Source: Bradyrhizobium ontarionense | Lineage (GTDB): Bacteria; Pseudomonadota; Alphaproteobacteria; Rhizobiales; Xanthobacteraceae | DNA length: 64,000 bases | Assembly: GCF_021088345.1 (NCBI RefSeq) | Contig: NZ_CP088156.1 | Coordinates: forward strand, 2,294,001-2,358,000 | Direction of reading: 5' to 3' | Shown here: positions 19,070-45,149 of the stretch, one piece after another | How positions within the stretch are numbered: the first letter of the stretch is position 1 | Layout of the letters: each line of letters starts with the position of its first letter | Notes under the pieces: generated by a model | Databases searched by the model: none | The model's input: only the letters and a program-made list of their open reading frames with translations | What the model was told of the DNA's origin: nothing | Translations under genes and position numbers: made by a program

Positions 19070-19301
19070 CACCCACGACCGCCTGGTCTACATGGCCAAC
19101 CAGATCGGCAAGTTCTTCCATTCCCAGGGCGGCGATCAAGCCGTGACCGGCGTCGCCGAGCACATCAAGAAGTTCTGGGATCCGCGGATGCTCAAGACGA
19201 TCTTCGCCCATCACGATTCCGGCGGCGCCGGCCTCGATCCGGCCGTGGCCGAGGCGATCGGCCGGCTGAAGCAGGCGGCGGCTGCGAAGGAAAAGGCGTA
19301 A
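19059..19301 (+). CDS. fdsD: formate dehydrogenase delta subunit
   Basis: This 80-residue subunit matches FdsD, a small protein that stabilises the FdsGBA complex. Recognisable parts are VYMANQIGKFFHSQGG, followed by the helix HIKKFWDPRMLKTIFAH. ATG at 19059 lies inside the end of fdhD. It is the last gene of the operon; glnE converges on it with 36 bases between. The alanine- and lysine-rich end is usual. Confidence 0.92.
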   Translation: MSHSTHDRLVYMANQIGKFFHSQGGDQAVTGVAEHIKKFWDPRMLKTIFAHHDSGGAGLDPAVAEAIGRLKQAAAAKEKA

Positions 19302-22298: not shown

Positions 22299-23755
22299 GC
22301 CGCCTTCTGTGGCACATCCTGTGTTGGAGCCGCAAGCTTCGCGGACAGGCCCGCGCCCGCGGGCAGGACCAGGGTCGCGACCAGCCCGGGATGGGCGTCG
22401 CCCAGCCTCAGCTCGCCGCCATGCAGGGTCGCCACCGCCGCGGCGAGACTGAGGCCGAGCCCGGAACCCGGCAAGGTGCGGCTCGCCTCCAGCCGCACGA
22501 ACCGCTCGACGGCGTGCTTGCGCTCGGCCTCGGGAATGCCCGGGCCATGATCGGTGACGCTGAGCAGCACCTGTCCGCCCTCCCGCCGCGCCTCGATCAG
22601 GATCTCCCGGCTGCTCGCAGCCAGATTGGAATCGAGCGGCAACGCGGCCGGCCTGCCGTACTTGATCGCGTTCTCGACGAGATTGGCGAGCGCCTGGCTG
22701 ATCAGCTCGCGATTGCCATGCACTGGCGCTGCCGCAGACTTGACGCGCAAGGTCATCTCATTGTCCTCGGCGAGCGGCTCGTAGAGCTCATGGATGCCGC
22801 CAGCGACGTCGGCGGCATCGAATTCGACCATGTCGCCGCGCGCCTGTCCGGACTCCGCGCGCGCGATCATCAAGAGCGCATTGAAGGTGCGGATCAGGCC
22901 GTCGGATTCCTCGATCGTGCGCTCGAGCGCCGCGCGATATTCCTCCTCGGACCGCGACTTCGCCAGCGCCTCCTCGGCACGGTTGCGCAGCCGCGTCAGC
23001 GGCGTCTTCAGATCATGCGCGATGTTGTCGGAGACCTCCTTGAGGCCGGTCATCAGCGCCTCGATGCGCTCCAGCATCGCGTTGAGGTTTTCCGCGAGAC
23101 GATCGAGCTCGTCGCCGCTGCGCCCGACCGGCAGCCGCCCCGTGAGGTCGCCGGCCATGATCCGCTGCGTCGTGCCGGTCATCGCATCGATCCGACGCAG
23201 CACGCGCCGTGCGACGAAGATGCCGCCGCCGATGCCGAGCACGATGACCACCAGAAGCGACCATTGCGCCGCCTTGGCGACGATGCCGAACAGCCGGCGC
23301 CGCTCCTCGAGGTCGCGCCCGATCAGCAGACGAAAGCCGCTCGACAGCTGCGTGACATAGACCAGCGCGCGATGGTTCTGATCACTGGTGTCATCGAGCC
23401 GGCGATAGAAGGTTTCCGACCAGCCGGACGAGCCCATCACGCCGGGCGCGAGCGAGCCGACATTGCCGGCGATCATCTGGCCCGTCGCGGTGGTGATGAG
23501 ATACAGATTGGCGCCGGGTCGCAGCGCGCGACTCTCGATGGCGCCGACGGTCCAGCGCAGGCCGCCGCGGGTGTAGATGTCGGTCATCTCGCTGATCTCG
23601 GCGGTGACCGTGGTCGAGATCTGCTCGGTGATGAGGCGGCGCGTATTCCAGGCGAAATAGCCGAGCAGCGAAGCCGCGAACAGCGCGAACAACAGCAGAT
23701 AGACCAGCGTCAGCCGGAACGCGGTGGTTCGGATCAGCTTACCGAAGGCCGTCAC
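22295..23755 (-). CDS. sensor histidine kinase, separated from its response regulator by the island
   Basis: This 486-residue kinase has two transmembrane helices (about 14–35 and 165–185) around a periplasmic sensor, then HAMP. A HisKA helix reads SDNIAHDLKTPLTRL, the N-box LANLVENAIKYGRP, and a G-box GHGPGIPEAERKH-like segment follows. The start is GTG at 23755. Upstream of it the 18-bp repeat ends at 23766 and the inserted island begins. The matching response regulator is at 44448–45149, on the same strand at the far end of the island. Before insertion the GTG overlapped the regulator's stop by 17 bases. The kinase now lacks an upstream partner gene and any coupled ribosome access, so its expression must come from the island end. 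Confidence 0.93.
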   Translation of the reverse strand: MTAFGKLIRTTAFRLTLVYLLLFALFAASLLGYFAWNTRRLITEQISTTVTAEISEMTDIYTRGGLRWTVGAIESRALRPGANLYLITTATGQMIAGNVGSLAPGVMGSSGWSETFYRRLDDTSDQNHRALVYVTQLSSGFRLLIGRDLEERRRLFGIVAKAAQWSLLVVIVLGIGGGIFVARRVLRRIDAMTGTTQRIMAGDLTGRLPVGRSGDELDRLAENLNAMLERIEALMTGLKEVSDNIAHDLKTPLTRLRNRAEEALAKSRSEEEYRAALERTIEESDGLIRTFNALLMIARAESGQARGDMVEFDAADVAGGIHELYEPLAEDNEMTLRVKSAAAPVHGNRELISQALANLVENAIKYGRPAALPLDSNLAASSREILIEARREGGQVLLSVTDHGPGIPEAERKHAVERFVRLEASRTLPGSGLGLSLAAAVATLHGGELRLGDAHPGLVATLVLPAGAGLSAKLAAPTQDVPQKAA

Positions 23756-23766
23756 GGATCATGTAC
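23749..23766. repeat. 18-bp direct repeat, left attachment-like site
   Basis: CCGTCACGGATCATGTAC here is identical to 44458–44475 in the same orientation. This copy contains the kinase's GTG start (as CAC at 23753–23755). The two repeats bound a 20.7-kb segment. Sequence to the left (lower coordinate) is native kinase coding sequence; sequence to the right differs in composition. Confidence 0.85.
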
Positions 23767-23770
23767 TTCT

Positions 23771-23802
23771 AAGCGGTTGATTTTGTAAGCGGATGATTTT
23801 GC
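23771..23802. repeat. tandem 16-bp repeat just inside the island's left end
   Basis: AAGCGGTTGATTTTGT (23771–23786) is followed at once by AAGCGGATGATTTTGC (23787–23802), differing at two positions. It begins four bases inside the 18-bp repeat. Direct repeats in this position can be accessory protein or integrase arm sites, but could equally be a local duplication in the new kinase leader. Confidence 0.55.
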
Positions 23803-24855
23803 TGGCGTCTTGCATGCCCTCAAATCTAGCCGTTTCTCCGGAGCGCCAGAAGTGACAAATCGTTCACGTGAGCGCAAACCCGCGCGTCGCAGCGCCCCGC
23901 AAAGACACGCCAAGATCGCAATTGAAGGCATTGAACCACCAAAGGACGGATTTGAAGCATTTTTGTTACAAAGATCGTGAAACGACGCCGTCGGGCACAA
24001 GCGGCTTTTACCATTTTACCGACAAGAAAAGCCTTCCACTGATCCGGGAACGTGGCCCTTGTCCACGAGTGAGCTCGGAGGACGCGGTCAGTACGAAGGC
24101 GCGTCACCGGCGGAGACGCGAACGACCTCGAGAGCGGTCGCCTATAGGGCAGCCGGCTTGGATGAACTCGACTTGCCGGTCATTGATCGCAGTGCCCGCG
24201 ACATGGATTGACACCGAGTTTTTCGACGCAAACGAGGCGGGCCCTGCCCACTCAGCGCGTCGCGATCGCGCATACGGAAGAGCGCGCCGCAACCAATTCC
24301 GCCATCTGACGCAGCACGATGGAATCGACGCGTTGTCGCGATTGCCGATACCTAACGACGGCCCCTGGGCGAACACATTCGAGGTTGCTGGCCGCGAATG
24401 CCGTCACCATGAGGCCGACCATGCCGGCGACATTCGAACTCCAGGTGACGTTCGGCGTTTCCGAACCGCGAACTACAACGCCCTTGATCATCGCCGAAGG
24501 CCGACGAGGGCGGCTCCGTGGCCCATTCGAGATGAATCAGATGTTAGTTGGAAGGCAACAATTCGACCTAATCAGTGAAGGACGGCGTATCGGCCGGCGG
24601 GAGCGCCGCACACGCGCGCGCACATCGGGTCTCACGAAGCCATCTCACTCGAAACTCTTGATTCCACCTTAAGTTTGTATTCTATTACCATGCAATCGAC
24701 GGGGAGGCAGTCGCCGTGCGAAGGGCTGGAACGAACACTGGACAGTTAGTCAAGGCTGGCGCCCATCGGCTAGAGCTAAACGATAGAGCCTGTTTCTGCT
24801 GATGGTTTCCGATCTGCGTTGAGTATTGGACGGGGCTTCACGGAATGGTCTGCAG
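23803..24855. other. gene-poor, degenerate left end of the island
   Basis: About 1.05 kb between the sensor kinase and the first island regulator holds no gene I can support. Composition is lower in GC than the flanks, and open frames shift between reading frames. A 236-codon frame (23868–24578) exists but lacks protein-like composition after its first third. The kinase's present promoter and that of the LysR gene should both be here. Confidence 0.5.
24003..24215 (+). pseudogene. possible remnant of an ADP-ribosyltransferase-like domain
   Basis: Frame at 24003 reads GFYHFTDKKSLPLIRERG, which resembles the start of DarT/DUF4433-like ADP-ribosyltransferase folds (YHFT…LPxI…HG). Directly after it the plausible continuation (LSTSELGGRGQYEGAS) is in another frame, with stops further on. 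This suggests a frameshifted fragment. The evidence is one short motif only. Confidence 0.25.
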
Positions 24856-25782
24856 ATGCGACCCCGCCTTCCCCCGTTGAACGCGCTTCGCGCCTTCGAA
24901 GCAGCGGCTCGCAACCTCAGTGTCACGAAAGCAGCCGACGAGCTCTGCGTAACGCCGGCCGCAGTGACACAGCAGCTCAAGATTCTGGAAGACGCGCTTG
25001 GCCGTCGCTTGATCCGCCGCGTCGGCCGCGGCGTAGAGTTGACAGAAAACGGCCAGCAGCTCTTTCCCGTCCTTTGCCGAACCTTTTCGGATATTTCGTC
25101 AGCAGTCACCGGGCTGACGTCGCATAGCGCGACGAAACTCAGAACCAGCTTTCTGGCGACCGTCGCCCAGAGATGGCTGGCGCCGAGGTTGATCGGGTTT
25201 CGGCGACAATTCCCGGATATTGCCGTCGCCGTCTCAACGTCGTTCCGCCTGGTCGATTTTACGAGAGAGGATATCGATGTCGCCTTGCGGCTCGGCTACG
25301 GATCCTGGCCGGGGCTCCATTCGACGTTCGTGATGAACGAAGAACTGTTCCCGGTCTGCTCGCCCACCCTGCTGCGCGAAGCGACACTCCCTGCTGGATC
25401 AGACCTGCTTCGTTGCCATTCGCTGGTCCACACCATCGTTCGGCCGACGGACTGGCACGCTTGGCAGGTCGAGGCCGGACTCGAGGATTTCGATGCCACC
25501 TCAGGATTTCATTGTGAAAATTCTGCGCTCGCGCTCGAGATGGCCGAATACGGGTTGGGACTTGCGATCGGCCGAACGCCGCTGGTCATTTCCGCACTCG
25601 CATCAGGACGATTGGTGGCGCCATTTGCGGCGCGGATGTCAAATCCTATGTCCTACTATCTGGTCTGTCAGGACACCGCCGCACGACGCCCCGAGATTGC
25701 CCGATTTCGCGACTGGATCGTAAATGAAGGTATCGAAACGATGGAGGCGATCAAGAAGTACATCCGGCGATCCGATCCTTAG
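24856..25782 (+). CDS. LysR-family regulator (GcvA-like), island module 1
   Basis: This 308-residue regulator has the GcvA-type opening LPPLNALRAFEAAARNLSVTKAA and the helix-turn-helix ELCVTPAAVTQQLKILE, followed by a two-lobed effector domain ending near residue 290. I chose ATG 24856; the frame also opens at TTG 24826. It converges on the flavin monooxygenase gene with 28 bases between the stop codons. By position it probably controls the adenylating ligase–methyltransferase–monooxygenase operon. The effector is unknown. Confidence 0.88.
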   Translation: MRPRLPPLNALRAFEAAARNLSVTKAADELCVTPAAVTQQLKILEDALGRRLIRRVGRGVELTENGQQLFPVLCRTFSDISSAVTGLTSHSATKLRTSFLATVAQRWLAPRLIGFRRQFPDIAVAVSTSFRLVDFTREDIDVALRLGYGSWPGLHSTFVMNEELFPVCSPTLLREATLPAGSDLLRCHSLVHTIVRPTDWHAWQVEAGLEDFDATSGFHCENSALALEMAEYGLGLAIGRTPLVISALASGRLVAPFAARMSNPMSYYLVCQDTAARRPEIARFRDWIVNEGIETMEAIKKYIRRSDP

Positions 25783-25810
25783 ACCATCAGCGCGCTTCAA
25801 GCACTTGTTT

Positions 25811-26986
25811 TCAGGGCTGCGCAAGAAGAGCCGTGCCGTAGTCTGCCATCGCGCGATCCCAATTCACATCCATGTGTGCAGCCATGACCTGGAGATCGCA
25901 CCAGTGGCGCTGCACCGGGTGCGTCTGTGCGATGACGGAGGTTCCAAGCTGGGACACCAGTTGTTGCACGGCGTTCACGCACAAGCGGGTCAGCCTGGCC
26001 CGATCCCGCTTGATCGCTGCATAGTCTCGATCGGAGAGATCGCGGCTGTAGCAACCCGCCTCATGCAGTCTTGATAGAATGCTGCGATACAAAAGTCGTG
26101 CGCATTCGATATCGGCGATGATCTCGCCGGCGCGCATGGCGAACGCCCATTGATTCCCATTCGGCTGCCGTCCATGGCGCTCTCGCATGATCGCAAGTCC
26201 CGCCGCGACCGCTCCCTCCGCACAGCCGAGCAGAGGGCCGACGATGACGCTGGTCAGATAGGGAATAAGAGAAACCGACTGCAAGTAGTGACCACCGCGT
26301 TCCGCCGAACGCCCCAGAACATTGTCCAGCGGCTGCGCCCAGCTTTCTGAAATCGAACGATCGCGGATAATGATGTCGCGCGAACCGGTCCCTGCCATTC
26401 CGATGGCCTGCCAATCATCGCCGATCTCGATGTCGATGGCTGGCAGCAGCGCCATAACCGTCCGGGCGTCGCGTCGGGACGGATGCAGGCATGGACCGGA
26501 CACGACCACCCATGTCGCATAGTCCACGCCGGAGCCGAGTCGCCACCGACCATCGACCCGATATGCGCCACCGTCCAGGGATATTCCGCCGGCCGCCGTC
26601 GCCGATCCCGTCGCGACAAGTTGACGGGCCCCGCTCCGGAAGACCGCGTTCACGGCCTCTGCTGGAAATCGCGATACGATCTGAATGTGTCCTCCGACCA
26701 GGCCCACGATCCATGCTGTCGAAGGGCACGCGCGCGCCGCGAGCCTTGCCACTTCTGCTAGGACGGGCCAATCCAATTCGAGGCCGCCGAAACGCTTCGG
26801 CATCGCGAGCTGAAGCAATCCGGCGTCGAACAGCTCATCGACCGACTCGCGCGGCAGCTTCCCAAGCCTGCGGGCTTCCTCCGCACGTTTGCGCCATCGT
26901 GGGAGCAGCGCCTCGACTGTCGCATAGAGCGTCGCAAGCGACGGCTGGTCCGCTCCCCAATAGACCGTCCCGTCCAGCCTATCCAT
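25811..26986 (-). CDS. acyl-CoA-dehydrogenase-fold flavin monooxygenase, island module 1
   Basis: This protein of about 391 residues has the acyl-CoA dehydrogenase fold in the form used by group D flavin-dependent monooxygenases (HsaA, HpaB-2, nitrososynthases). Helpful features are LPRESVDELFDAGLLQLAMP near the front, GMAGTGSRDIIIRDRSI in the middle, and the ending HWCDLQVMAAHMDVNWDRAM. That ending is characteristic of these oxygenases rather than true acyl-CoA dehydrogenases. It likely hydroxylates an aromatic or amine nitrogen using reduced flavin supplied by a separate reductase, which is not present here. Start at ATG 26986 overlaps the methyltransferase stop by eight bases. Confidence 0.8.
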   Translation of the reverse strand: MDRLDGTVYWGADQPSLATLYATVEALLPRWRKRAEEARRLGKLPRESVDELFDAGLLQLAMPKRFGGLELDWPVLAEVARLAARACPSTAWIVGLVGGHIQIVSRFPAEAVNAVFRSGARQLVATGSATAAGGISLDGGAYRVDGRWRLGSGVDYATWVVVSGPCLHPSRRDARTVMALLPAIDIEIGDDWQAIGMAGTGSRDIIIRDRSISESWAQPLDNVLGRSAERGGHYLQSVSLIPYLTSVIVGPLLGCAEGAVAAGLAIMRERHGRQPNGNQWAFAMRAGEIIADIECARLLYRSILSRLHEAGCYSRDLSDRDYAAIKRDRARLTRLCVNAVQQLVSQLGTSVIAQTHPVQRHWCDLQVMAAHMDVNWDRAMADYGTALLAQP

Positions 26987-27980
26987 GCGCACGCTCCAGA
27001 ACCTTTCGCAACATTGGCTGCTCGAAGACGAACTGATCTTCAATCAAGGGCGGGCCGAGAAGGCGGACGAACTCTTCGATGCGCTGCCCGTCGTTCGAGG
27101 CGACGAACTCGTAGAAATTCGTGCTATTCCACAACAGATAGCAGTGCGAGAAGTGTCGTCCAATCGAGCTCACGAGCTCGTCGAGGAGAACCTCCCCCTC
27201 ATACATGCGCAGCAGCATCTGCTGCCGTTTCCACTCGATCTCTTCGAGCGTAAAATAATGCGCCTTGTGCTGCTCGTCCTTGACGCGTTCCCGTCGTTCG
27301 TACTCGAGGCGGTCGGTGTGATTGAGCTTTTCGAGAAAGAAGACCAGCCCATCGTCCCTGAGCATGCGACAGCCCTGCTCGATCTGGAAATCGCGGTCCT
27401 TGCCGTAAAACTGAAAGGCGGCGGTTTCGTAGATATAATCAAAGCCGCCGTGGAAATCCTCGTCGTCCACCAGCGTGCGAAGGACGTCCTGGTCGAGCTT
27501 CAGGAACGACATCGGAACGAATCTCGACAGGGCCGGATCGGCAAAGCGATCAAAGTGCTCCTCGTTCGCCTTGTTCGGAGAACAAGTCAGTGTCTTGACG
27601 GCGCCGCCGGAAAACGCGGCAAGCGTCCGCGCGTTGGAGCCATCGAAGGCATCGATCTCATAAAGCAGGCAGGGCCGACCGCTGCTTTCGGCCCGCGGTC
27701 TCGACAGACGGCTCAGCGCCACGCCCACGCGCGACATTTCCTCGAGGATGCCTGGAATGCTGGCGAGGAAATGCGAGAACAGTGGTCCTGCCTTCGGTAC
27801 CAGCCGGTCGTGATACTCCAGCACGTCGGCATCCGCTATCCGGTTGCGGATCCGCGTCAGCACCGGCTGCCGCGGCACTTGTGCCGCTCCGGTCGCCAAT
27901 TGCTCGAATTGCCGCGCCAATCGGATCATCGAAGATTGCTGAAGATAGGCGTCGACGTCGGTCGCAGGTCGATTGGTCAT
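26979..27980 (-). CDS. SAM-dependent methyltransferase-like protein, island module 1
   Basis: This 333-residue protein has a class I methyltransferase-like core. CLLYEIDAFDGSNARTLAAF at about residue 105 is in the position of motif I, GFDYIYETAAFQFYGKD is the strand 4 region, and MLRDDGLVFFLEKLNHTD corresponds to motif III. The first 60 residues and the acidic C-terminal third are not typical. The usual GxGxG is absent in motif I, so activity needs testing. It lies 51 bases after the ligase and overlaps the monooxygenase, so the three form one operon. The methyl acceptor is unknown. Confidence 0.65.
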   Translation of the reverse strand: MTNRPATDVDAYLQQSSMIRLARQFEQLATGAAQVPRQPVLTRIRNRIADADVLEYHDRLVPKAGPLFSHFLASIPGILEEMSRVGVALSRLSRPRAESSGRPCLLYEIDAFDGSNARTLAAFSGGAVKTLTCSPNKANEEHFDRFADPALSRFVPMSFLKLDQDVLRTLVDDEDFHGGFDYIYETAAFQFYGKDRDFQIEQGCRMLRDDGLVFFLEKLNHTDRLEYERRERVKDEQHKAHYFTLEEIEWKRQQMLLRMYEGEVLLDELVSSIGRHFSHCYLLWNSTNFYEFVASNDGQRIEEFVRLLGPPLIEDQFVFEQPMLRKVLERAHG

Positions 27981-28031
27981 GCCCGAAGACCTCCACTGAT
28001 GCTGGGCCGAGGATGAGGATGGGGATAGGGA

Positions 28032-29519
28032 TCAGGACAATGCGCGGGTCGCGGTTTTTCCCGACGCGGTCCGCGGCAGCGCCGGTACGAACTCCACGAA
28101 GGCAGGCACCATGTGCCAATCGAGATGCATCGTGCAGTATTCGACCAGTTCCTGGCTCGTGATGGACGTCGCCTGCTCCGCCACGATCAATGCCTTGGGG
28201 AGATGTCCGACGGTTTCGTCGGCGACGGGGACTACGGCGGCTTCCGAAACCGCGGGGTGGGTTATGAGCAATTGCTCGATCTCTCGCGGATTGACCTTGA
28301 ACCCGCTCCGCGCAAAGGCGTCGTCCTTCCTTGCGACGTAATAGAGATACCCCTGGCCATCGACGCGGAACAGGTCGCCCGTCAGGAACACCCGAGCTTC
28401 ACCGGCCACCCCCTCAATCATTCGGTCGGAGGTCTCTTCCGGCATGTTCCAATATTTCTGCATCAGCAGATCGCCGGCAACACCGAGCTCGCCGACCTGC
28501 CCCGGCTCGGCCATGAGGGAGCGATCCTCGCCAAACAGATAGGTCCGCACGCCGGGAATGGCCCGGCCGACCGACTGCGGCCGTTGATCGATCTCGTCGG
28601 GCGGCAGAAACGAGACGCGCTTGCACTCCGTGAGCCCATAGTTGGAGAAGATCTGGACGCTCGGCCACGCCTCTCGCAAGCGGCGGATATGCTTCACCGG
28701 CAGGGCCTGGCCGCTCGTGGAGATGTAACGCAGCGATCTCGGCGCGCGCCTTCCCAGCGCGGTCGCCTTTAACAGGTGGAAGATGAAGGGAGGAAAAACC
28801 TGCAGCCCAGTCACGCCGTGTGCGTCGATCAGATCGATGATCTCATCGGGGTCATCCGGCAAAGCCCGCTCGACGAGCGCGGTCCCCCCGAACATGAGCG
28901 GCATCATCACATTATAGAAGCCGTAGTCGGAGCCCAAGGTCGAATAGCTCAGAACCACATCCTCGGATGTGTTCTTGAGATAGCCGGTCACCGATTTGAA
29001 CGCAGCGATCATATTTTTGTGATTGACGGCGACGCCCTTCGGGCGCGACGTCGAGCCCGACGTATAGAAGATGACTGAAATATCCTCTTCCCGCACCTCC
29101 CGGCAAAACGAACAGTCGCGTTCTGGCACGGCGGCAGAAAAATCGTCTTCACAACCATAGATTGTGATGCCTGACTGGAGCTCCCGCAATTCGGCCGCCC
29201 GATCGGTGATCACCGCACAAGCACCGGAATCCTGAAGCTCGAACATCAGCTTTCGGAGCCCGAAGGTGTGATGAACTCCCACGAGAACCGCACCGGCCTT
29301 GAATATGCCGAGAACAACACCGAGCAAACGAACGGAAATCGCGCCATAGATCGCGACCCTGTCTCCAGCACGGATGCCGTCATCGACGAGGCGAGCGGCG
29401 ACCTGATTGCCGATATCATCCAGCTCGCGATAGGTCGCGCGCGCGCCATCGATCTTCACTGCGATCTTCTCTGGATAGTCTCGAACACTGCGTTCAATAT
29501 AGTGATGGAAAAGGCACAC
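28032..29519 (-). CDS. AMP-dependent acyl/aryl ligase, island module 1
   Basis: This 495-residue enzyme is an ANL-superfamily adenylate-forming ligase. The P-loop-like A3 motif reads FYTSGSTSRPKGVAVNH near residue 153; the A5 region reads FSNYGLTECKRVSFLP; the A7/A8 hinge reads FLTGDLFRVDGQGYLYYVARKDD; and the A10 lysine sits in LPRTASGKTATRAL. It activates a carboxylic acid with ATP, then transfers it to CoA, a carrier protein or an amine. No carrier protein is encoded nearby, so CoA or direct amidation is likelier. The start is GTG at 29519. The gene is first in the operon and divergent from the cupin. Confidence 0.9.
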   Translation of the reverse strand: MCLFHHYIERSVRDYPEKIAVKIDGARATYRELDDIGNQVAARLVDDGIRAGDRVAIYGAISVRLLGVVLGIFKAGAVLVGVHHTFGLRKLMFELQDSGACAVITDRAAELRELQSGITIYGCEDDFSAAVPERDCSFCREVREEDISVIFYTSGSTSRPKGVAVNHKNMIAAFKSVTGYLKNTSEDVVLSYSTLGSDYGFYNVMMPLMFGGTALVERALPDDPDEIIDLIDAHGVTGLQVFPPFIFHLLKATALGRRAPRSLRYISTSGQALPVKHIRRLREAWPSVQIFSNYGLTECKRVSFLPPDEIDQRPQSVGRAIPGVRTYLFGEDRSLMAEPGQVGELGVAGDLLMQKYWNMPEETSDRMIEGVAGEARVFLTGDLFRVDGQGYLYYVARKDDAFARSGFKVNPREIEQLLITHPAVSEAAVVPVADETVGHLPKALIVAEQATSITSQELVEYCTMHLDWHMVPAFVEFVPALPRTASGKTATRALS

Positions 29520-29624
29520 TCGGAAGCTCCCGCAACCTCTGGATGAGTTTTTATAACAAAGAGTCGCAGCTCATGGTAGGAGAATTCCGTTACACGTCGT
29601 GTTGTGCAAAATGACTGAGGAAAC

Positions 29625-30011
29625 ATGTTTGTACGCGATCTCGAAGAAGTCGAAAAAACAGGCAGGTTCGTCGAGTGGGGAAATGGCACGAGCCACCGGC
29701 TATTGACGGCAAGCGATGGAATGGGTTTCGCCGTATGCCACACCGTGGTTCGCGCCGGCACAGTATCAAGGCTGCAATACCGATCTCACCTGGAAGCATG
29801 CTATTGCATTGCGGGGGAAGGTGAAGTCGAGGACATGCAAGGCAATGTGTATCGGCTCCGCCCGGGCAGCATCTATGTTCTCAACGAACATGACGAACAC
29901 TATCTGCGCGGCGGCCCGGCGCAGGATCTGGTGCTGGTAAGCGTGTTCAACCCGCCGCTCGCCGGCCACGAGCAGCACAATCTCGACGCAGACAGCGGAT
30001 CGTCTTACTGA
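29625..30011 (+). CDS. solitary ectoine-synthase-like cupin
   Basis: This 128-residue cupin aligns end to end with EctC, the iron-dependent enzyme that closes the ectoine ring. The expected iron ligands are Glu57 (HLEA), Tyr84 and His92 (YVLNEHDEH). Also kept are Arg25, Thr40, Tyr52, His55 and Gly64, and the ending [11 protein letters not shown]. Departures are Gly21, where EctC has Trp, and Ser106 in place of the active-site Cys. No ectA or ectB is present. GAGGAAAC precedes the ATG. With the divergent ligase, methyltransferase and monooxygenase, I infer a ring-closing or lyase role on a different substrate. Confidence 0.82.
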
Positions 30012-30041
30012 GGCGGTTCATCAGCTGGTTGGGGTTGCTCG

Positions 30042-31247: not shown

Positions 31248-31260
31248 TGTCCCCGCCGCG

Positions 31261-32238: not shown

Positions 32239-32524
32239 CAGTCCTTCAAGTCCCGTAGGCCATGAGCGATCCTCCCGACGACCTCCGCCGCCGCGCGGCC
32301 AGTGCGCGCCACGACCGCAAGTAAGCCCGACCCACCACGCGCCGGTCAAGGTCGAAAGAAGCCGTAAATCCCTCCAGGGCGTGAGTGATCTTCGAGGTCC
32401 CATGTCTCGCCGCAGCTGCCGGCAAGCCTTCGTCGAATGCGAATGGTGCCTTGCCTAAAAAGCGTTGGCGCTCTCCGGCAGGGCTCATCATCCTGCCACC
32501 ACCTGGGAGTCAGTGAGACGGACG

Positions 32525-33535: not shown

Positions 33536-33568
33536 CCGATCATCCGGCCCGGCCGCAGCACATGCTGC

Positions 33569-37533: not shown

Positions 37534-37543
37534 CTCAGGCGCC

Positions 37544-38641
37544 TCAGGCTGTGGGAGTCGAAGCTGCGGCAACGTCCTTCACTGGAAAGCTCGGATATTC
37601 GCCGGCCTCCCACCGCCGGATCATTCCGTCCGCGACGACCTGTGCGAACTCACGCCGCCCTGGCAGCGGCAGCTTCTGACCCGCAAGCATCGCGCGGGCG
37701 TCCTCCCAGGATTTCCGCCATGCTCCTGCATCAACCACGGCAGAACCGGGGTCCGCCTTGCTGCGTACGCGGATATTCGGGAACCACGGCCGATCGGTCG
37801 GTTGATGCGCCGGGTAGTAGCGGAAGTCGAAGCTCCAGCGCACCTGTGCCGTCTTGTTCAACCTGGAGCCATGCGGCGCCTTCTTGTCCAACAGCACGAT
37901 ATCGCCGAACTTGACCGGCAACGGGATGCTCTTCCTCTCAAGACGATCGATCAGCGCAGCGTCCATCGGCCAAGGCAGCAACGAGTCGTCATTATGTTCG
38001 CCCCCCACGACAGCCAAGCATCCGTTCTCCTCGTCGACATCAGTCGTCGGAATCCAGACCGTCAGCACGGTCGTGTCGTTCGACTGCGGGAGCTGGCCCA
38101 TCGCGTCCTGGTGCCAGAGGGTCGGCGCGTAGATCGTCTCGCCCTTCCGGCCGCCGAACTGCTGGACCTCCCGCGCCGGCAGCTTGATCCGGCAATGCTG
38201 ATTCGGGCTTGCATTGATCTCGGATCCGAGGATGCACTCGACCACATCCAGCACCTTCGGATTCTGGACCAGCGACAACACGCCGGGGCCGACATGAAAC
38301 TCGCTGTCATCCTGGATGAACGAGAACGGCATGTGCGGCAACGTGATATCGAGCTCGGCAAGCAGCGTAAGCGGAAACCCCGGAAGCTCGACCAGCCGCC
38401 TGAGGTGTTCCTGGAACGGCAGCCCGCCATGATCCTCACCGCCCGAGAACAGTCCTTTTGCGCGCCACGTCCTGACCCGCTCCCGCAACAACTCGTCGTA
38501 CTCACGTCTCACGGGAACGAAATCCGCCTCGTCCAGAACACCTCGGACGACCAGATATCCCTGCTCCTGGAAGCGAGCGACGTCGGCTGCGTCGAGCGCC
38601 GGCATGCGCAAACCTGATACGGTCATGGTGGCCAACTCCAT
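37544..38641 (-). CDS. phytanoyl-CoA dioxygenase (PhyH) family Fe(II)/2-oxoglutarate oxygenase
   Basis: This 365-residue protein has the double-stranded beta-helix of PhyH-type oxygenases. The iron triad is visible as His177-x-Asp179 in LWHQDAMG and His257 in KKAPHGSRLN, with Arg268 in QVRWSFDFRY in place to hold 2-oxoglutarate. An opening ARFQEQGYLVVRGVLDEADF is typical. It should hydroxylate a small substrate while converting 2-oxoglutarate to succinate and CO2. It sits 12 bases downstream of the GH3 gene in the same operon. Secondary-metabolite tailoring is a common role for the family. Confidence 0.88.
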   Translation of the reverse strand: MELATMTVSGLRMPALDAADVARFQEQGYLVVRGVLDEADFVPVRREYDELLRERVRTWRAKGLFSGGEDHGGLPFQEHLRRLVELPGFPLTLLAELDITLPHMPFSFIQDDSEFHVGPGVLSLVQNPKVLDVVECILGSEINASPNQHCRIKLPAREVQQFGGRKGETIYAPTLWHQDAMGQLPQSNDTTVLTVWIPTTDVDEENGCLAVVGGEHNDDSLLPWPMDAALIDRLERKSIPLPVKFGDIVLLDKKAPHGSRLNKTAQVRWSFDFRYYPAHQPTDRPWFPNIRVRSKADPGSAVVDAGAWRKSWEDARAMLAGQKLPLPGRREFAQVVADGMIRRWEAGEYPSFPVKDVAAASTPTA

Positions 38642-38653
38642 CTATGGATCGAT

Positions 38654-40426
38654 TCACGTCGATGACGGAATGAACGAGCCTGCCCCGTCGAGCAGCATGC
38701 CAATATCGCGAAGGATCTTCAGCCCCGAGGCGTCGCGCTGCAGCCAGTGATGCTTGACCTGCGCCGAAGCCACTCCACCGCTGATCCTGTGCTCGGCAAG
38801 CCTGGTGAAGGCGCCGGGGACCAGCTTGACTATCGTCAGCGGCGCCAGTCGGCCGCTGGACAGCTTGTCGCCGTATTCCAGATTGACCCTGCCGAGCGCC
38901 GCATCGATGCGCGTTGCCAGTGTCGCCTGCATCAGCTCGAGCTTCGGCGACCACTCGAGCGCGACAGCGTAGTGAGGCGGCGTGCCCCAGACCGGGAAGC
39001 AGCAGAAGTTCGGCGTCTCGGCCGACCCAGATTCGATCGTACGCGACACCGCCGAGAACACATCAGCTTCGGTCAGCTTTTCGCCGGTGAACGAACTACA
39101 TGCGCCGCTTCTTCCGACGAACTCGAGCCTCGGCACCGCCCCAACCCAGCCCACAACGCGATACACATCGCCGACGTCATACCGATAGAGACCGTTGGCC
39201 TGGGTCATCACGAGCCTGTAGCAGCGCCCGAACTCCAGCTCCTCGAAAGTCAGCGTTTCGGCACTTTCCGATGGCGCGACGTTTTCCAGAATATCGTCGA
39301 CCGGAACGAACTCGTAGAGTCCCTGGGTCACGGCGAGAGGGCCGGCACTGCGGTGCATGTCGACCGGCAGCGTGACGATGCCTTCGGTACCCGTCGTGCT
39401 GAAGGGAAGCCGCGTAGCATCGGGGATCAGGCGATCGAGCCAATTCTCGTAGAGCTGCGCTGACGCGCTGTTCCAGCAGACGATGAGCGACAGATTGGGC
39501 CAGAGATCAGAGAGAAGCAATTCACCGCCGCGCAATTTGAGCTGCCCTTCCAGGCGTCGCGCGAGGTCCTGACCGCCCGGAGCCGAGGCGCTGCCCCTGA
39601 CGTCGCGGATCAGCCGCGTTGCAAATTGCCGCAGCGTCTCCGCCAACATGATGATCTTGCTCGGGTTCACCGAAACGATCAGCCGCACGTCACAGAATGC
39701 CTGCATGCGCAGCCGCTGGTAGAGCCGCTCGGCATACCCGTCGGGATCGCTCTCGCATGAGAACCAGGGCGCGCCGTACCATGGCGGCAACCAGTCGGAC
39801 TCCCCGAGCGGCTCCGGCCGCTGTGTAATGCTGTAGACGGGAAATCCCTGAATGCTCTGCCTCGCGGTCTGCGGCTCCCATGACAGATCCAGCACGTTCT
39901 CGACCTTCGGCGTATCCAGCCGGAGCAGCCTGAAATAGAGGCCCCATTGCGCGTAAAGCGCCGGTCCGCGATAGGCGAGCCGCCAATGCCGTGTCGTCGG
40001 GACCAGCTTTTCTTGGCCGGTGGTTCCTGACGTCTTCAGAAACGCATAGGGATCGTCCCGCGTAAGTACCTTTCGCTCCCGGGAAAGCTGTCGATCGATA
40101 TAGCCCCTGAGCTGACCGTAACTGCGGATCGGCACTGCCCGCCTGAATTCATCGAAGCTGCACACGCCCGCGAGCGCGTGCTCCCGCTCGAATGCCGTTC
40201 CAGTCAGTTCGCGCAACACATCGTGGAAGACCGTCCCAACAGTCGCATGCGGAGATTGACAGATCAGGCGCTGGCGATCGAGCGCCGCCTCGCTCTGCGC
40301 GCAAAAGCGGGCCATGCGGCTCACGTCGTCGGCGCCGCCTCCGACGACGCTCGTCGTTCGGACGCCAGCCGTTCCACCATGCTGGATGCGGGAAACACGA
40401 CTCTGTTCTGTGGAAAGGTCCTGCAT
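38654..40426 (-). CDS. GH3-family acyl-acid amido synthetase
   Basis: This 590-residue protein matches the GH3 family, ATP-dependent enzymes that join carboxylic acids to amino acids; plant members conjugate auxin and jasmonate. The three nucleotide motifs are present and in order: KTSGTTGQEKLVPTT at 131–145, STTGTEGIV at 343–351, and GLYRYDVGDVYRVVGW at 412–427, followed by FTGEKLTEADV at 446–456. Residues 1–40 are poorly conserved and the start is uncertain (ATG 40426). It is first in a six-gene operon. Bacterial GH3 genes are not rare but seldom have known products. The acid and amine substrates are unknown. Confidence 0.9.
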   Translation of the reverse strand: MQDLSTEQSRVSRIQHGGTAGVRTTSVVGGGADDVSRMARFCAQSEAALDRQRLICQSPHATVGTVFHDVLRELTGTAFEREHALAGVCSFDEFRRAVPIRSYGQLRGYIDRQLSRERKVLTRDDPYAFLKTSGTTGQEKLVPTTRHWRLAYRGPALYAQWGLYFRLLRLDTPKVENVLDLSWEPQTARQSIQGFPVYSITQRPEPLGESDWLPPWYGAPWFSCESDPDGYAERLYQRLRMQAFCDVRLIVSVNPSKIIMLAETLRQFATRLIRDVRGSASAPGGQDLARRLEGQLKLRGGELLLSDLWPNLSLIVCWNSASAQLYENWLDRLIPDATRLPFSTTGTEGIVTLPVDMHRSAGPLAVTQGLYEFVPVDDILENVAPSESAETLTFEELEFGRCYRLVMTQANGLYRYDVGDVYRVVGWVGAVPRLEFVGRSGACSSFTGEKLTEADVFSAVSRTIESGSAETPNFCCFPVWGTPPHYAVALEWSPKLELMQATLATRIDAALGRVNLEYGDKLSSGRLAPLTIVKLVPGAFTRLAEHRISGGVASAQVKHHWLQRDASGLKILRDIGMLLDGAGSFIPSST

Positions 40427-40595
40427 GATGTCCGACCTATCTTCATTTGTAGATCATCGACGTCTCGCAGGGATTGATACTGACGGCTCGCGCAAAGCGT
40501 CAATTTAGATTTCCTGTCCCGGTTCTAGAAATTCTAAAACGACGTTCACTTCGGAGTTTGGCAATGTCTTGGTCTCAGCGGATCGGACGGATGCA

Positions 40596-41840
40596 ATGAT
40601 ACAGTTGATGGACGTCTACGCGATTGCGATGCCGATGCACCGGGTCTTCGTTCATGCAACCATGGCGCGCCACGAGAGCGATGGCATTCTGGTCTGCGTC
40701 GATGTCGATGGCGTAACCGGCTATGGCGAAGCAGCCCCTCGTCCTTACGTCACGGGCGAAACCACCGGGACCGTTCTGAAGGCCCTCGCCTCTTGCGCAT
40801 TGAACGAACTCGATGCGCTGATCGACTGGCGTTCGCTTCAGGCCGTCGTCGCAAGCCTGAAGGATCTGGCGCTGCCGAAGATGCTGTCCGTCGATGGTCG
40901 GCTGTCGCCCGCTGCGGCCTGCGCCTTGGAGATGGCCCTTCTTGACGTGGCCTGCCGACTCCACGGCCGACCAATGGCTTCTGCATTGCACGCCGCAGGC
41001 CTCGGCGAAGACATGTTGCGACCCGTGCCTTGCGCCATTTCAGCCGCTCTGGTCGTCGACCTCTCGACCTCTCCAGAGGAGATGGTCGCGCACGAGCTCG
41101 CACTGGCGAACGGCATCAAGCACGTCAAGCTGAAAGTCGGAGCGGATGGCGATCAGGCGGTGGAACGCGTGAGACGGTTTCGCGACCTGATTGCGCCATC
41201 GATCTCGCTTTCCGTGGATGTGAACGCGGCATGGACTCTGCCACAGGCGATTGCCGCCTGCAGGCAGTTGCAGGGTCTTGGCGTGGCATGGCTCGAGGAA
41301 CCGCTGCGGCCCAGGGACTGGGCGGGCCTCCGGCAATTGCGCGAGGAGACCGGCATCCCTTTGATGCTGGATGAATCATTCGTGGAAGAGAACGATCTCG
41401 CCGCGGCGATCGACCAGCGCGCCTGCGATCTCGTCAATATCCGCGTATCGAAATGTGGTGGCCCACTTCGAGCGGCAGGCCTGGCCGATACGGCGTTTCA
41501 TTCCGGCCTCGGCTATCAGATCGGCGTCCAGGTTGGCGAACATGGCCCGCTCTGGGCCGCGGGACGCGCGCTCGCGACATCGCTACGTCACGCCAGCGCC
41601 TGCGAGGTTGGACGCGCAGACGAATGGTTTCCTCACGACACGACGATCCCTCCCTTCCAGATTGATCGCAAAACCTATCTTGCGCCGCCACTGTCTGGCC
41701 ACGGGCACGGTCTCGTTCCGGGACCGGCGTTGTGGGCGCACGCAAGGCACGCCTTCTCGCATGTCGCGACAACACCTCGTTCCGCTCTCGTCGAGGCAGA
41801 ACGGCGCGTTACCACTTGGAACGCTGAGGCTCGGGGATGA
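40596..41840 (+). CDS. enolase-superfamily enzyme (muconate lactonising/dipeptide epimerase subgroup)
   Basis: This 414-residue enzyme keeps the full active site of the MLE subgroup. It has the Lys178-x-Lys180 pair (HVKLKVG), the metal ligands Asp208 (DVNAAW), Glu234 (EEP) and Asp259 (LDES), and Lys286 (RVSKCGG). This subgroup includes dipeptide epimerases, N-acyl amino acid racemases, o-succinylbenzoate synthases and cycloisomerases. ATG 40596 is the likely start; the frame also opens at TTG 40569. It heads a four-gene operon divergent from the GH3 operon. In that setting an N-acyl amino acid racemase role is attractive but unproven. Confidence 0.87.
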   Translation: MIQLMDVYAIAMPMHRVFVHATMARHESDGILVCVDVDGVTGYGEAAPRPYVTGETTGTVLKALASCALNELDALIDWRSLQAVVASLKDLALPKMLSVDGRLSPAAACALEMALLDVACRLHGRPMASALHAAGLGEDMLRPVPCAISAALVVDLSTSPEEMVAHELALANGIKHVKLKVGADGDQAVERVRRFRDLIAPSISLSVDVNAAWTLPQAIAACRQLQGLGVAWLEEPLRPRDWAGLRQLREETGIPLMLDESFVEENDLAAAIDQRACDLVNIRVSKCGGPLRAAGLADTAFHSGLGYQIGVQVGEHGPLWAAGRALATSLRHASACEVGRADEWFPHDTTIPPFQIDRKTYLAPPLSGHGHGLVPGPALWAHARHAFSHVATTPRSALVEAERRVTTWNAEARG

Positions 41841-42595
41841 CGACATCGTCGATCGAACACAAAATGGCCCTCGTCACCGGAGCGGGCGCCGGCATCGGCG
41901 CCGAGGTCGCGCGCCGGCTTGCAGATGCAGGAGCACGGCTCCTGCTGGTCGACAAAGACACGGCCGCACTCAACGCCCTCCGCCGTCAGATCGGCGATCA
42001 CCGTGCCCTGTGCCTGCCGATCGACGTCACCGATATCGCAGCAATCAGCGACGCCATCCAAGGGCTCTCGGATGCCCAGCGTCCGGACATCCTGGTGAAT
42101 GCCGTCGGAGGCGACGCGAACTCCATCCCGCTTGCGGACCTCGATGAAACTTACCTGGAGACATCGGTGCGGCACAATCTGACGACCGCCTTCACCATGA
42201 CGCGTCTCTGCGCGCCGGCGATGCGTCGGCGACGGTGGGGTCGCATCGTCAACTTTGCGTCGATCGCCGGCCGCACCTACTCCTACTTCAGCAACGCCGC
42301 CTATGTCGCAGCAAAGGCGGCCGTCATCGGGCTGACCAAGCAAACGGCCTATGAGCTTGCGGCCGACGGCGTCTGCGTCAATGCAGTCGCGCACGGCCCG
42401 ATCGCCACCGACCGCATCCAGGCAGCCTGGGCGAAGCATAGCCCTGAGCGGCGACGAAATATTACCGAACGCATTCCGATCGGGCGACTGGGCACTGTGG
42501 ATGAGGCAGCTGCCATTGTGATCCATCTGTGTTCGCAGGAGGCGGGTTACACCACCGGGACGGTGATCGACATCAATGGGGGGCTGTTCATATGA
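41837..42595 (+). CDS. short-chain dehydrogenase/reductase 1, island module 2
   Basis: This 252-residue SDR has the nucleotide motif [17 protein letters not shown] in the NNAG position, and the catalytic serine and Tyr-x3-Lys in [21 protein letters not shown] read in two parts. The C-terminus [13 protein letters not shown] is standard. The start ATG overlaps the enolase-superfamily stop (ATGA), and its stop overlaps the next SDR start. Substrate class (sugar, hydroxyacid or alcohol) cannot be told. Confidence 0.9.
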
Positions 42596-43425
42596 ACTGG
42601 ACGACCACGGAACGAACGGCGACGGCCGAGCGGGTCGCCAGCCCATCAGCGGACTACGGGTTAGGCGGCAAGGTCATCATCGTCACCGGCGCCGGCCGAG
42701 GCATCGGCCGCGCCGCCGCGCTGGCATTCGCGGCCTGCGGAGCTCGTGTCGTCCTGGCGGGACGACAGATCGGCTCCAGCGATCAGGCGTTGGCCGCGCT
42801 CCCGCCGGATCAAACGATGATCGTGCCGACCGACGTGCGGGACGAGCAGAGCGTCACGCGTCTCGTCGACATGACCGTCCGCCGGTTTGGCCGGCTGGAC
42901 GCTGCGTTCAACAACGCAGGCACGTTCGGCAAATTCGCTCCGCTCCACGAGGACGATCGCGACAATTTCGATCAGGTCGTCGCGACCAATCTGCGCGGAA
43001 CATGGCTGTGCACCAAGCATGAGATTCGCGCGATGCTGGAGTCGGGCGGCGGCGCGATCGTCAATTGCGCATCGGTCGCGGGGCATATCGGACATGCCCA
43101 GAGCGCCATCTACAGCGCAACCAAACATGGCGTCATCGGCCTCAGCAAGTCGGCCGCACTTCAATACGCGCGCCGCGGCATTCGGGTCAACGCGGTGAGC
43201 CCCGGCAGCACGGACACGCCGATGCTCAGGAGCATCTACCCGACCGAGGGGCAACTGAGCGCTCGCGGATCACGCGCGCCACTCGGCCGGATCGGACAGC
43301 CGGATGAGATTGCACAGGCTGTTCTCTGGCTCTGCTCTCCCATGGCTTCCTATGTGACGGGGCAGACCGTGGTGGTCGATGGCGGCGTCACGGCCGGGCA
43401 GGCGTTGGTGGCCGAACGCAAATAA
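42592..43425 (+). CDS. short-chain dehydrogenase/reductase 2, island module 2
   Basis: This 277-residue SDR begins after a 22-residue leader at [23 protein letters not shown] is present in [12 protein letters not shown], and the catalytic tyrosine and lysine sit in [16 protein letters not shown]. The ending [13 protein letters not shown] is typical. It is only distantly related to SDR 1, so this is not a recent duplication. ATG 42592 overlaps the SDR 1 stop by four bases. Confidence 0.9.
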
Positions 43426-43459
43426 CGGCCGGAAGCGCGTATCGATGGAGGAGCAGCGA

Positions 43460-44431
43460 ATGTCAGTCATCCTGGGCAGCGGCGATTTTCGCTACATGGT
43501 CACCGAGGGCTGGGGCGAGCTGCCGGACGGCTGGTCTTATGGCGACGTCGCCGCGGTCGGCGTCGACCGGAAGGATCGCGTCTACGTCTTCAACCGCGGC
43601 GCGCATCCCGTGATCGTCTATGATCAGGACGGCCGGTTCCTCCGGTCCTGGGGTGAAGGCTTGTTCGCGCGGCCGCATGGGCTGCACATGGGACCGGACG
43701 ACACGATCTTCCTGACCGACGACGGCGATCATACCATCAGACAGTGCACGTTGGATGGGAAGGTTGTGCTCACGATCGGAATTCCGATGCGGCCGTCGCC
43801 CTACATGAGTGGAGAGCCGTTCCATCGGTGTACGCATACGGCTCACGCGCCGAACGGCGACATCTACGTGTCCGACGGCTATGGCAACGCGTGCTGCCAC
43901 AAATTCTCGCCATCTGGGAAACATCTGATGTCATGGGGCGAATCCGGCAGCGACCCGGGCCAGTTCAACATCGTGCACAACATCTGCTGCGACGCGGAGG
44001 GATGGGTCTATGTCGCGGATCGAGAGAACCACCGCATCCAGGTGTTCGATGCGAACGGTCGCTACGAGACTCAATGGAACAACCTTCATCGTCCATGCGG
44101 ACTTTACATGCCGCCGGGAAAGCAGCAGCTCTGCTACGTCGGAGAGCTCGGCCCCTCGCTTCCCGTCAACAAGAATGCCCCGAATCTCGGACCGCGCGTG
44201 ACCATCGTCGACAGCCGCGGCGCGACCGTCGTTCGGCTCGGCCATTTGCATGCCGGCGAAGCGCCCGGTCAGTTCATCGCGCCGCATGGTGTGGCCGTCG
44301 ATTCCCACGGAGACATCTATGTTGCCGAAGTGTCCAATGCGGTCTGGCCGTCCATCAAGCCGCCGCTCGAGCCGCCGCGGGAGCTGCGCTGCCTGCAGAA
44401 GCTGACCAGGCTTGCCTCGGCGCCTGCTTGA
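43460..44431 (+). CDS. NHL-repeat beta-propeller protein, island module 2
   Basis: This 323-residue protein is built from NHL-type repeats (VGVDRKDRVYVFNRGAHPVI, GLHMGPDDTIFLTDDGDHTI, DAEGWVYVADRENHRIQVFD, VAVDSHGDIYVAEVSNAVW), predicting a six-bladed propeller like peptidylglycine lyases or lactonases. No signal peptide is seen, so it is probably cytoplasmic. ATG 43460 is chosen because GGAGGAG lies six bases upstream; an in-frame ATG at 43445 is less well placed. It ends 17 bases before the regulator's stop on the other strand, at the island's right edge. It might hydrolyse a lactone from the SDR or enolase step. Confidence 0.82.
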   Translation: MSVILGSGDFRYMVTEGWGELPDGWSYGDVAAVGVDRKDRVYVFNRGAHPVIVYDQDGRFLRSWGEGLFARPHGLHMGPDDTIFLTDDGDHTIRQCTLDGKVVLTIGIPMRPSPYMSGEPFHRCTHTAHAPNGDIYVSDGYGNACCHKFSPSGKHLMSWGESGSDPGQFNIVHNICCDAEGWVYVADRENHRIQVFDANGRYETQWNNLHRPCGLYMPPGKQQLCYVGELGPSLPVNKNAPNLGPRVTIVDSRGATVVRLGHLHAGEAPGQFIAPHGVAVDSHGDIYVAEVSNAVWPSIKPPLEPPRELRCLQKLTRLASAPA

Positions 44432-44447
44432 GGCCGCGGTCTGGATC

Positions 44448-45149
44448 TCATCTCATCCCGTCACGGATCATGTACCCGGCGCCGCGGATGGTATGGAGCA
44501 GCGGGCGATCGAAGCCCTTGTCGATCTTGGAGCGCAGCCGCGAGATGTGGACGTCGATCACGTTGGTCTGCGGGTCGAAGTGATAGTCCCAGACGTTTTC
44601 CAACAGCATCGTGCGCGTCACCACCTGGCCGGCATGCTTCATCAGATATTCGAGCAGGCGGAATTCGCGCGGCTGCAAGGTCAGCTCGTCCTTGCCGCGG
44701 GCGACGCGATGGGAGAGACGGTCGAGCTCGAGATCGCCGACCTTGTAGGTCGTCTCCTCGGCGGGACCGCCATGGCGGCGCGACAGCACCTCGACGCGGG
44801 CGAGCAGCTCGGCGAAGGCATAGGGTTTCGGCAGATAATCGTCGCCGCCGGCGCGCAGGCCCTTGATGCGGTCATCGACCTGGCCGAGCGCGGACAGAAT
44901 GAGAACCGGGGTGCGGTTGCCCCTGTCGCGCAACAGGCCGATCAGCGACAGGCCGTCGCGCTTCGGCAGCATGCGGTCGACCACCAGCACGTCGTAATCG
45001 CCGCTCTCGGCCATCGACAGGCCCTCCTCGCCATCGCTGGCGAGATCGGCGACATGGCCGACCTCGCGGAACGCCTTGACGAGATAGTCGGCGGACTCGC
45101 GGTCGTCTTCGATGATCAGGAGGCGCATTTCGGAAACGGGGGCGGTCAC
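44448..45149 (-). CDS. OmpR-family response regulator, partner of the displaced sensor kinase
   Basis: This 233-residue regulator has a receiver domain with the acidic pair IIEDDRES, phospho-acceptor Asp in DVLVVDRMLPKRDG, the switch residue in VLILSALGQ and Lys in YLPKPYAF. A winged-helix C-domain follows (VTRTMLLENVWDYHFDPQTN, VDVHISRLRSKID-like). Its C-terminus reads GYMIRDGMR. The last residues lie across the 18-bp repeat, so the stop codon is island-derived. The sensor kinase is 20.7 kb away. The frame starts at GTG 45149, though ATG 45128 (MRLLIIEDD) is also plausible. It lies downstream of degP, 270 bases away. Confidence 0.92.
   Translation of the reverse strand: MTAPVSEMRLLIIEDDRESADYLVKAFREVGHVADLASDGEEGLSMAESGDYDVLVVDRMLPKRDGLSLIGLLRDRGNRTPVLILSALGQVDDRIKGLRAGGDDYLPKPYAFAELLARVEVLSRRHGGPAEETTYKVGDLELDRLSHRVARGKDELTLQPREFRLLEYLMKHAGQVVTRTMLLENVWDYHFDPQTNVIDVHISRLRSKIDKGFDRPLLHTIRGAGYMIRDGMR
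44458..44475. repeat. 18-bp direct repeat, right attachment-like site
   Basis: This copy is identical to 23749–23766 and encodes, on the minus strand, the YMIRDG end of the response regulator. The regulator's final residues and stop (44448–44457) come from island-side sequence. See the island entry. Confidence 0.85.

What the first reader, a model, noticed from the sequence alone, without database searches (positions are those of the whole stretch)
23749..44475. A 20.7-kb metabolic island inserted between a response regulator and its kinase, flanked by an exact 18-bp direct repeat
CCGTCACGGATCATGTAC occurs at 23749–23766 and 44458–44475 in the same orientation. One copy contains the kinase start codon, the other the regulator's C-terminal YMIRDG. 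Joining them restores a regulator ending DGLR-stop that overlaps the kinase GTG by 17 bases; the present regulator ends DGMR-stop using island sequence. This precise preservation of both reading frames points to site-specific integration into the 3' end of a two-component gene, an unusual attB compared with tRNA or guaA targets. No integrase is present.
Basis: partly seen in the sequence, partly recalled or inferred. Interest (0 to 1): 0.85.

Follow-up and report, generated by a model that had tools for sequence, protein, structure and literature searches.

The report
Island hotspot inside overlapping sensor-regulator genes
In Bradyrhizobium soil bacteria, mobile DNA islands repeatedly insert at one exact 18-letter spot where two signalling genes overlap, and nearly every island carries the letters needed to keep both genes readable; the window holds one such island that has lost, or never had, its own insertion enzyme.

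Summary
CCGTCACGGATCATGTAC occurs twice, at 23749-23766 and 44458-44475, and nowhere else in the 8.44-Mb genome at up to two mismatches. Close relatives hold one copy in a contiguous regulator-kinase pair.

The site is a recurrent integration site. Of 265 Bradyrhizobium genomes 263 match the joined flanks, and 61 (window included) have the pair split by other DNA. A 124-row tree needs 34 changes of state, 19 forced by strong branches.

The missing integrase was found in relatives. A tyrosine integrase of about 410 aa lies inside the kinase-side copy: near full length in 15 of 57 split sites, a fragment in 12. All 12 named loci with at least 58% identity sit at this site.

The attachment site is the gene overlap. 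Element DNA re-encodes the regulator's end (DG[ILM]R-stop in 56 of 58 cases), and the core keeps the kinase GTG.

Two things go further. A motif occurs once in each of 9 of 265 genomes, always upstream of a split kinase, probably its promoter. The window's 19.9-kb cargo lies at another locus in relative G065. No integrase remnant was found in the window.

The parts
22295..23755 (-). Sensor histidine kinase gene (486 aa); GTG start lies inside the kinase-side copy of the 18-mer
   Evidence: the kinase match begins at residue 1 at all 52 split sites read (window included)
23749..23766 (+). Kinase-side attachment core CCGTCACGGATCATGTAC
   Evidence: same place in relatives
23767..24533 (.). Kinase-side island end (767 bp), absent from the copy of the cargo in relative G065
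   Evidence: homology to G065 starts at 24534
23848..23868 (-). Conserved motif, kinase strand CGTGAACGATTTGTCACTTCT, probable promoter element of the separated kinase (TTGTCA 103 bp from the GTG)
23823..23828 (-). Candidate -10 element TAGATT on the kinase strand, 24 bp downstream of TTGTCA (inference from sequence only)
   Evidence: comparable TAnnTT by eye in several other ends; not tested
24534..44418 (.). Cargo: LysR regulators, acyl-CoA dehydrogenase, AMP-binding ligase, ectoine-synthase-like cupin, MFS and EamA transporters, alcohol dehydrogenase, two 2-hydroxyacid dehydrogenases, hydrolase, PhyH, GH3, enolase-superfamily, two SDRs, NHL protein
   Evidence: 95% identical block in G065
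44419..44457 (.). Regulator-side island end (39 bp); 44448-44457 supplies the regulator's last codons and stop
44458..44475 (+). Regulator-side attachment core CCGTCACGGATCATGTAC, encoding YMIRDG of the regulator
44448..45149 (-). OmpR-type response regulator gene (233 aa), ending DGMR-stop with island letters

Best explanation
The 18-mer is the attachment core of a chromosomal integration hotspot of Bradyrhizobium, at the 17-bp overlap between the 3' end of an OmpR-type response regulator gene and the start of its kinase gene. A family of tyrosine integrases of about 410 aa, encoded just inside the kinase-side end of the element, recombines an 18-bp core on a circular element with this site. 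The element carries beyond the core the codons that re-create the regulator's C-terminus, and the core keeps the kinase start codon, so both genes survive integration. Integration cuts the kinase off from the regulator operon; some elements, the window's included, bring a conserved sequence that is probably a new kinase promoter. Elements lose the integrase, pile up in tandem and exchange cargo. The window shows an integrase-less occupant with a 19.9-kb metabolic cargo. Shown by sequence: hotspot, core, cognate integrase clade, recoded regulator end, motif distribution. Inferred: that the integrase catalyses the reaction, that the motif is a promoter, and how the window's cargo got in.
For: Two exact cores. 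Contiguous site in the sister genome and in most of the genus. 61 of 263 genomes split, all 61 read on the kinase side (57, 4). 34 changes of state on a 124-row tree, 19 forced by starred branches; the window is sister to an empty genome. Integrase match of at least 395 residues in 15 of 57 kinase-side ends and of 25-304 residues in 12; it starts 216-385 bp from the kinase GTG in 13 of the 15, and in the other two (G007, G053) behind an inner second core. Two more sites (G033, G057) have integrase matches. The 12 named loci with integrases of 58% identity or more all have the core (at most 1 mismatch) before the integrase; none of the 30 more distant loci has it within 3 mismatches. Arm-binding, central and catalytic domains; conserved R243, H333, R336, H362. 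Regulator ends YMIRDG[ILM]R-stop in 53 of 54 sites and, read by eye, in 3 of 4. An inverted core copy 172-177 bp inside three intact ends. Tandem cores in G007, G053, G177.
Against: The window itself has no integrase or remnant, and 30 of 57 kinase-side ends (window included) have none. Its cargo lies at another place in G065 without the 18-mer and next to IS66-type genes (the IS66 label is my reading of the sequence), so the whole 20.7 kb need not have come in as one unit. Some inserts are only 0.1-1 kb, and in some (G175, G160, G344, G393) the kinase-side core is decayed. The regulator end is not restored in G053 (GVDRNPYK-stop) or G057 (DGIKGPSN-stop, my reading). Strand exchange was not observed.
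Confidence: 0.9

Rival explanations
1. Two-step history for the window: a small att-bounded remnant (about 0.8 kb, of the kind seen in G073, G144, G081 and G157) already sat at the site, and the 19.9-kb metabolic block was inserted into it later by an IS-linked or homologous event.
For: The block 24534-44418 is 95% identical to a block at another locus in G065 whose regulator-kinase site is empty. The remaining ends sum to 806 bp, close to the small elements of 0.5-1 kb. There is no integrase remnant.
Against: No target duplication or transposon end was seen at the inner borders (by eye). The cargo ends 39 bp from the regulator-side core, so the insertion would have to be very near the edge.
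Confidence: 0.4
2. The 18-mer pair is chance or coding similarity, and the regulator and kinase were separated by ordinary rearrangement.
For: Some split sites have no recognisable kinase-side core (G175, G160, G344, G393), and in G145 and G019 the two halves are megabases apart.
Against: Exact repeat with no chance matches, preserved regulator end in 56 of 58 readable cases, cognate integrase beside the core in 12 of 12 named loci.
Confidence: 0.02
3. Ancestral arrangement: the kinase originally had its own promoter and separate position, and the contiguous operon arose repeatedly by deletion between the repeats.
For: The probable kinase promoter motif is found in several lineages and, as TTTGTCAC, in three of eight split sites of other genera. 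Parsimony counts changes without direction.
Against: 202 of 263 genus genomes and a number of genomes of other genera (those with joined matches listed) are contiguous. Islands differ in content and several carry an integrase at the edge.
Confidence: 0.05

Closest known systems
dusA-associated genomic islands and their integrases (PMC4482086; abstract and found passages seen)
   Same: An integrase family specific for one place in a protein-coding gene; 21-bp semiconserved repeats (here 18); islands very different in content and size with only the integrase in common; element DNA replaces one end of the target gene, and the authors found putative promoters after integration.
   Different: dusA islands replace the 5' end of one gene. 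Here the core lies in the overlap of two genes, re-encoding the 3' end of the first and keeping the start codon of the second. The terms two-component and histidine kinase have 0 occurrences in that paper's main text.
Genomic islands and ICEs at tRNA genes and guaA in rhizobia (PMC8627217, passages; tRNA-flanked photosynthesis cluster PMC7656271, passages)
   Same: Short core shared by attP and attB, tyrosine integrases, tandem occupation and competition for sites.
   Different: Other targets. No VirB4 (PF03135) match lies between the two ends of a same-contig island in the 15 genomes searched; G019, with its halves apart, is unclear, so these do not look like ICEs.
TIGER/Islander islands and 'regulated gene integrity' (PMC12424338, whole text read; the 2020 paper itself not held)
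   Same: That survey reports 43.4% of islands in protein-coding sequences, so a coding target as such is ordinary.
   Different: This site is not named in the text read; their island table was not available here, so it may well list some of these islands.
P4-type tyrosine integrases with Arm-DNA-bind_3 domain (Pfam PF13356, PF22022, PF00589; the label P4-type is recalled)
   Same: Same three-domain make-up.
   Different: A separate clade: the next relatives found in the genome collection are only about 26-35% identical.

Membership tests
Site-specific genomic island (the site) | Direct repeats at both ends, one copy at the empty site | tested here: met
Site-specific genomic island (the site) | Sporadic presence among relatives, closest relative empty | tested here: met
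Site-specific genomic island (the site) | Different elements at the same place in other genomes | tested here: met
Integrase-bearing mobile element | Integrase gene in the element, in relatives at this site | tested here: met
   15 near full length and 12 fragments of 57 kinase-side ends
Integrase-bearing mobile element | Integrase gene in the window's own island | tested here: not met
Integrase-bearing mobile element | Excision to a circle / integrase-dependent integration | not testable with these tools
   needs an experiment
ICE | Own conjugation machinery (VirB4/TrbE) | tested here: not met
   15 genomes with large islands searched; no match between the two ends of any same-contig island, G019 unclear
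Symbiosis island | nodA inside the element | tested here: not met
   nodA in 17 of 21 genomes searched; none lies between the two ends of an island whose ends are on one contig; genomes with the ends on different contigs cannot be judged
dusA-type islands | Insertion in dusA | tested here: not met
   target is a response regulator / kinase overlap
Kinase promoter brought by the element | Conserved motif only at split kinases | tested here: met
   exact pattern in 9 of 265 genomes, once each, all upstream of a split kinase
Kinase promoter brought by the element | Transcription starts there | not testable with these tools
   needs RNA data

The most novel reading that the evidence does not exclude
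These elements rewire a two-component system without breaking it. By recombining exactly in the overlap of regulator and kinase genes they re-encode the regulator's end, keep the kinase's start and, in one set of elements, supply a dedicated conserved promoter. A co-transcribed pair thereby becomes two separately controlled genes, and gain or loss of the element acts as a heritable, reversible switch of the regulator-to-kinase ratio in about a quarter of the genus (61 of 263 genomes).
Probability: 0.3. Interest if true: 0.68.

Novelty: new variant of a known kind. Interest (0 to 1): 0.52.

Why it matters
It defines a heavily used integration site of a major group of soil and nitrogen-fixing bacteria, with its cognate integrase clade. 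That predicts where cargo DNA lands and offers a possible insertion tool for Bradyrhizobium. Biologically, it is a natural experiment on breaking the transcriptional coupling of a two-component pair next to degP and glnE many times over, with a candidate replacement promoter conserved at some of the split kinases. It also accounts for the window's repeat and shows that integrase-less islands can be traced to their site from relatives.

Tried and rejected
Symbiosis island: rejected where testable, nodA lies outside. ICE: no VirB4 between the ends of same-contig islands; G019 left unclear. Integrase remnant in the window: none (tblastn; HMM, where fragments of G018 and G122 were found as positive controls). 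Motif as a general regulator box: rejected for the exact pattern, which occurs nowhere else in 265 genomes; the looser form in the own genome gave 15 hits against 3 for the reversed pattern, not followed up. Cargo shared with other islands at this site: no aligned stretch of 250 bp or more in the pieces fetched by then; of most large islands only up to 20 kb from each end was read. G016 was first counted as split; its two halves overlap and both stop at contig ends, so it is an empty site cut by the assembly, and the count went from 62 to 61. Empty rows for the tree were 70 of 202, not random (30 best matches to the window, 39 spread down the ranking, and G355); split rows 54 of 61, those with both halves fetched by then. 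The listing of integrase matches was cut before G159 and G382.
Full report
WHAT IS THERE. The two exact 18-mers exist at the stated places and nowhere else in the genome at up to two mismatches. The left copy holds the kinase GTG, the right copy the YMIRDG of the regulator. Neighbours are a DegP/HtrA protease and GlnE.

EMPTY SITE. A 600-base join of the two flanks was searched in 195 genus genomes and then in all 265 held; 263 matched. 201 are contiguous by score, and G016 makes 202: its two halves overlap and stop at contig ends. The six best matches to the window, G355 (94%), G166, G065, G399, G178 and G098, are all contiguous. Of 70 empty sites read, 32 hold the exact 18-mer, 26 differ in the last base, 9 at one inner base, 1 (the sister G355) at another base, and 2 by more.

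HOTSPOT. 61 genomes have the pair split: 45 (46 without G016), 15, and the window. All 61 were read on the kinase side (57; G033, G057, G159 and G382). The 22 inserts measured run from 385 bp to 8.4 kb, and that of G037 is 83 bp. By the places of the two halves others reach tens of kb to over 200 kb (for example G052 99 kb, G007 174 kb, G348 221 kb). Content differs: a 7.1-kb element is shared by G062, G095, G136 and G122, a 1.9-kb one by G058, G068, G188 and G007, and three small ones carry HTH or HigB-like genes. Tandem cores occur in G007, G053 and G177. On a tree of 124 rows (54 split, 70 empty) from regulator plus kinase DNA the label needs 34 changes, 19 forced by starred branches (shuffled mean about 40), and the window is sister to the empty G355 with starred support. 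Some other genera of the family also show separated halves; in the eight of them fetched, tblastn with one integrase of this family found none.

THE INTEGRASE. A profile from the own genome's integrases found genes beside the kinase-side core in G028, G053 and G145, and other integrase matches deeper inside two islands. With the proteins so found as queries, and then with eight aligned ones, 15 of 57 kinase-side ends have a match of 395 or more residues, 12 have 25-304 residues, and 30 (the window included) have none. Not all 15 are intact: G145 has a stop, and G104 ends before the catalytic tyrosine. In most fragments the part that survives is the arm-binding N-terminus next to the core; in G122 and G095 31-38 residues of the C-terminal part match instead. 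Of the four sites read last, G033 has a 391-residue match cut by the end of the stretch and G057 a broken copy. The proteins carry Arm-DNA-bind_3, Phage_int_M and Phage_integrase domains (the last one under its cut-off in one of three). A scan of named genomes gave 42 loci. The 12 with 58% identity or more are all Bradyrhizobium and all have the core, with at most one mismatch, before the integrase; the 30 others have none within three mismatches. In three intact ends tested, an inverted 11-13-base copy of the core lies 172-177 bp further in.

HOW BOTH GENES SURVIVE. At 54 occupied sites read, 53 regulators end YMIRDG(I, L or M)R-stop: 41, 7 and 5 respectively; the exception is G053. Four more read by eye give three with DG(I or L)R-stop (G033, G034, G159) and a second exception, G057. 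The codons after the core come from the element and vary. The kinase match begins at its first residue at all 52 split sites read (43 other genus genomes, 8 of other genera, the window).

THE KINASE SIDE. Integration takes the kinase away from the regulator's transcript. Nine of 265 genomes hold GAAGTGACAANNNGTTCANG exactly, once each. All nine copies lie upstream of a split kinase, with TTGTCA 64-103 bp from the GTG. G075 has a near copy, and three of eight split sites in other genera have TTTGTCAC at a like place. The six empty genomes nearest to the window lack the motif. The simplest reading is a promoter of the separated kinase; this is inference. Most other split sites do not have it, so other solutions must exist or the kinase is poorly expressed there.

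THE WINDOW'S CARGO. 24534-44418 is 95% identical to a block in G065 at another locus, beside IS66-type transposase genes (my reading of the sequence) and without the 18-mer, while G065's regulator-kinase site is empty. So 767 bp and 39 bp of element ends enclose a cargo that also moves or moved by other means. The cargo codes mainly for acyl-CoA, hydroxyacid, SDR and enolase-superfamily enzymes, a GH3 protein, transporters and LysR regulators.

LITERATURE. Searches listed no paper whose title or shown abstract describes this site; that is limited to the open library held and to what was read. The nearest published case is the dusA islands (PMC4482086, abstract and passages). Coding targets are common in general (PMC12424338, whole text). 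The 2020 paper on regulated gene integrity was not held.

VERDICT. The site, its integrase clade and the two-gene repair are well supported by comparison; catalysis and promoter activity are untested. It is a new variant of a known kind.

Noticed in passing
L219/L220 (G065:C1:828001-860000): The whole metabolic cargo of the window lies in the relative G065 at another locus, next to IS66-type transposase genes; how it moves is unknown.
   Followed up: partly
G000:C1:318149-321517: The window's genome has a second, 76-81% identical set of parts of the cargo (acyl-CoA dehydrogenase and ligase region) about 2 Mb away.
   Followed up: no
L127 (G181:C84), around 19130-19200: In G181 the regulator-side end carries a second copy of the first 76 or so bases of the kinase gene before the core, as if an element had carried off host flank.
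   Followed up: no
G019 (3572907 and 5787285) and G145 (3852822 and 7040712): The two halves of the site lie megabases apart on opposite strands of the main contig, suggesting inversion between island copies; G019 also has three VirB4 matches with the same score.
   Followed up: no
G053 regulator side (L119) and G057 regulator side (L308): The two readable occupied sites where the regulator C-terminus is not restored (GVDRNPYK-stop; DGIKGPSN-stop).
   Followed up: no
L115:6713-7774 (G107): An integrase of another kind lies inside the G107 island about 11.4 kb from the regulator-side core.
   Followed up: no
window 50143-50182 and 52550-52589: The only other exact 18-mer repeats printed for the window more than 1 kb apart, from one repeated stretch.
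   Followed up: no
G000 genome: The looser motif GTGACAAWNCGTTCAYG at up to two mismatches gives 15 hits against 3 for the reversed control, so a weaker set of related promoters may exist.
   Followed up: no
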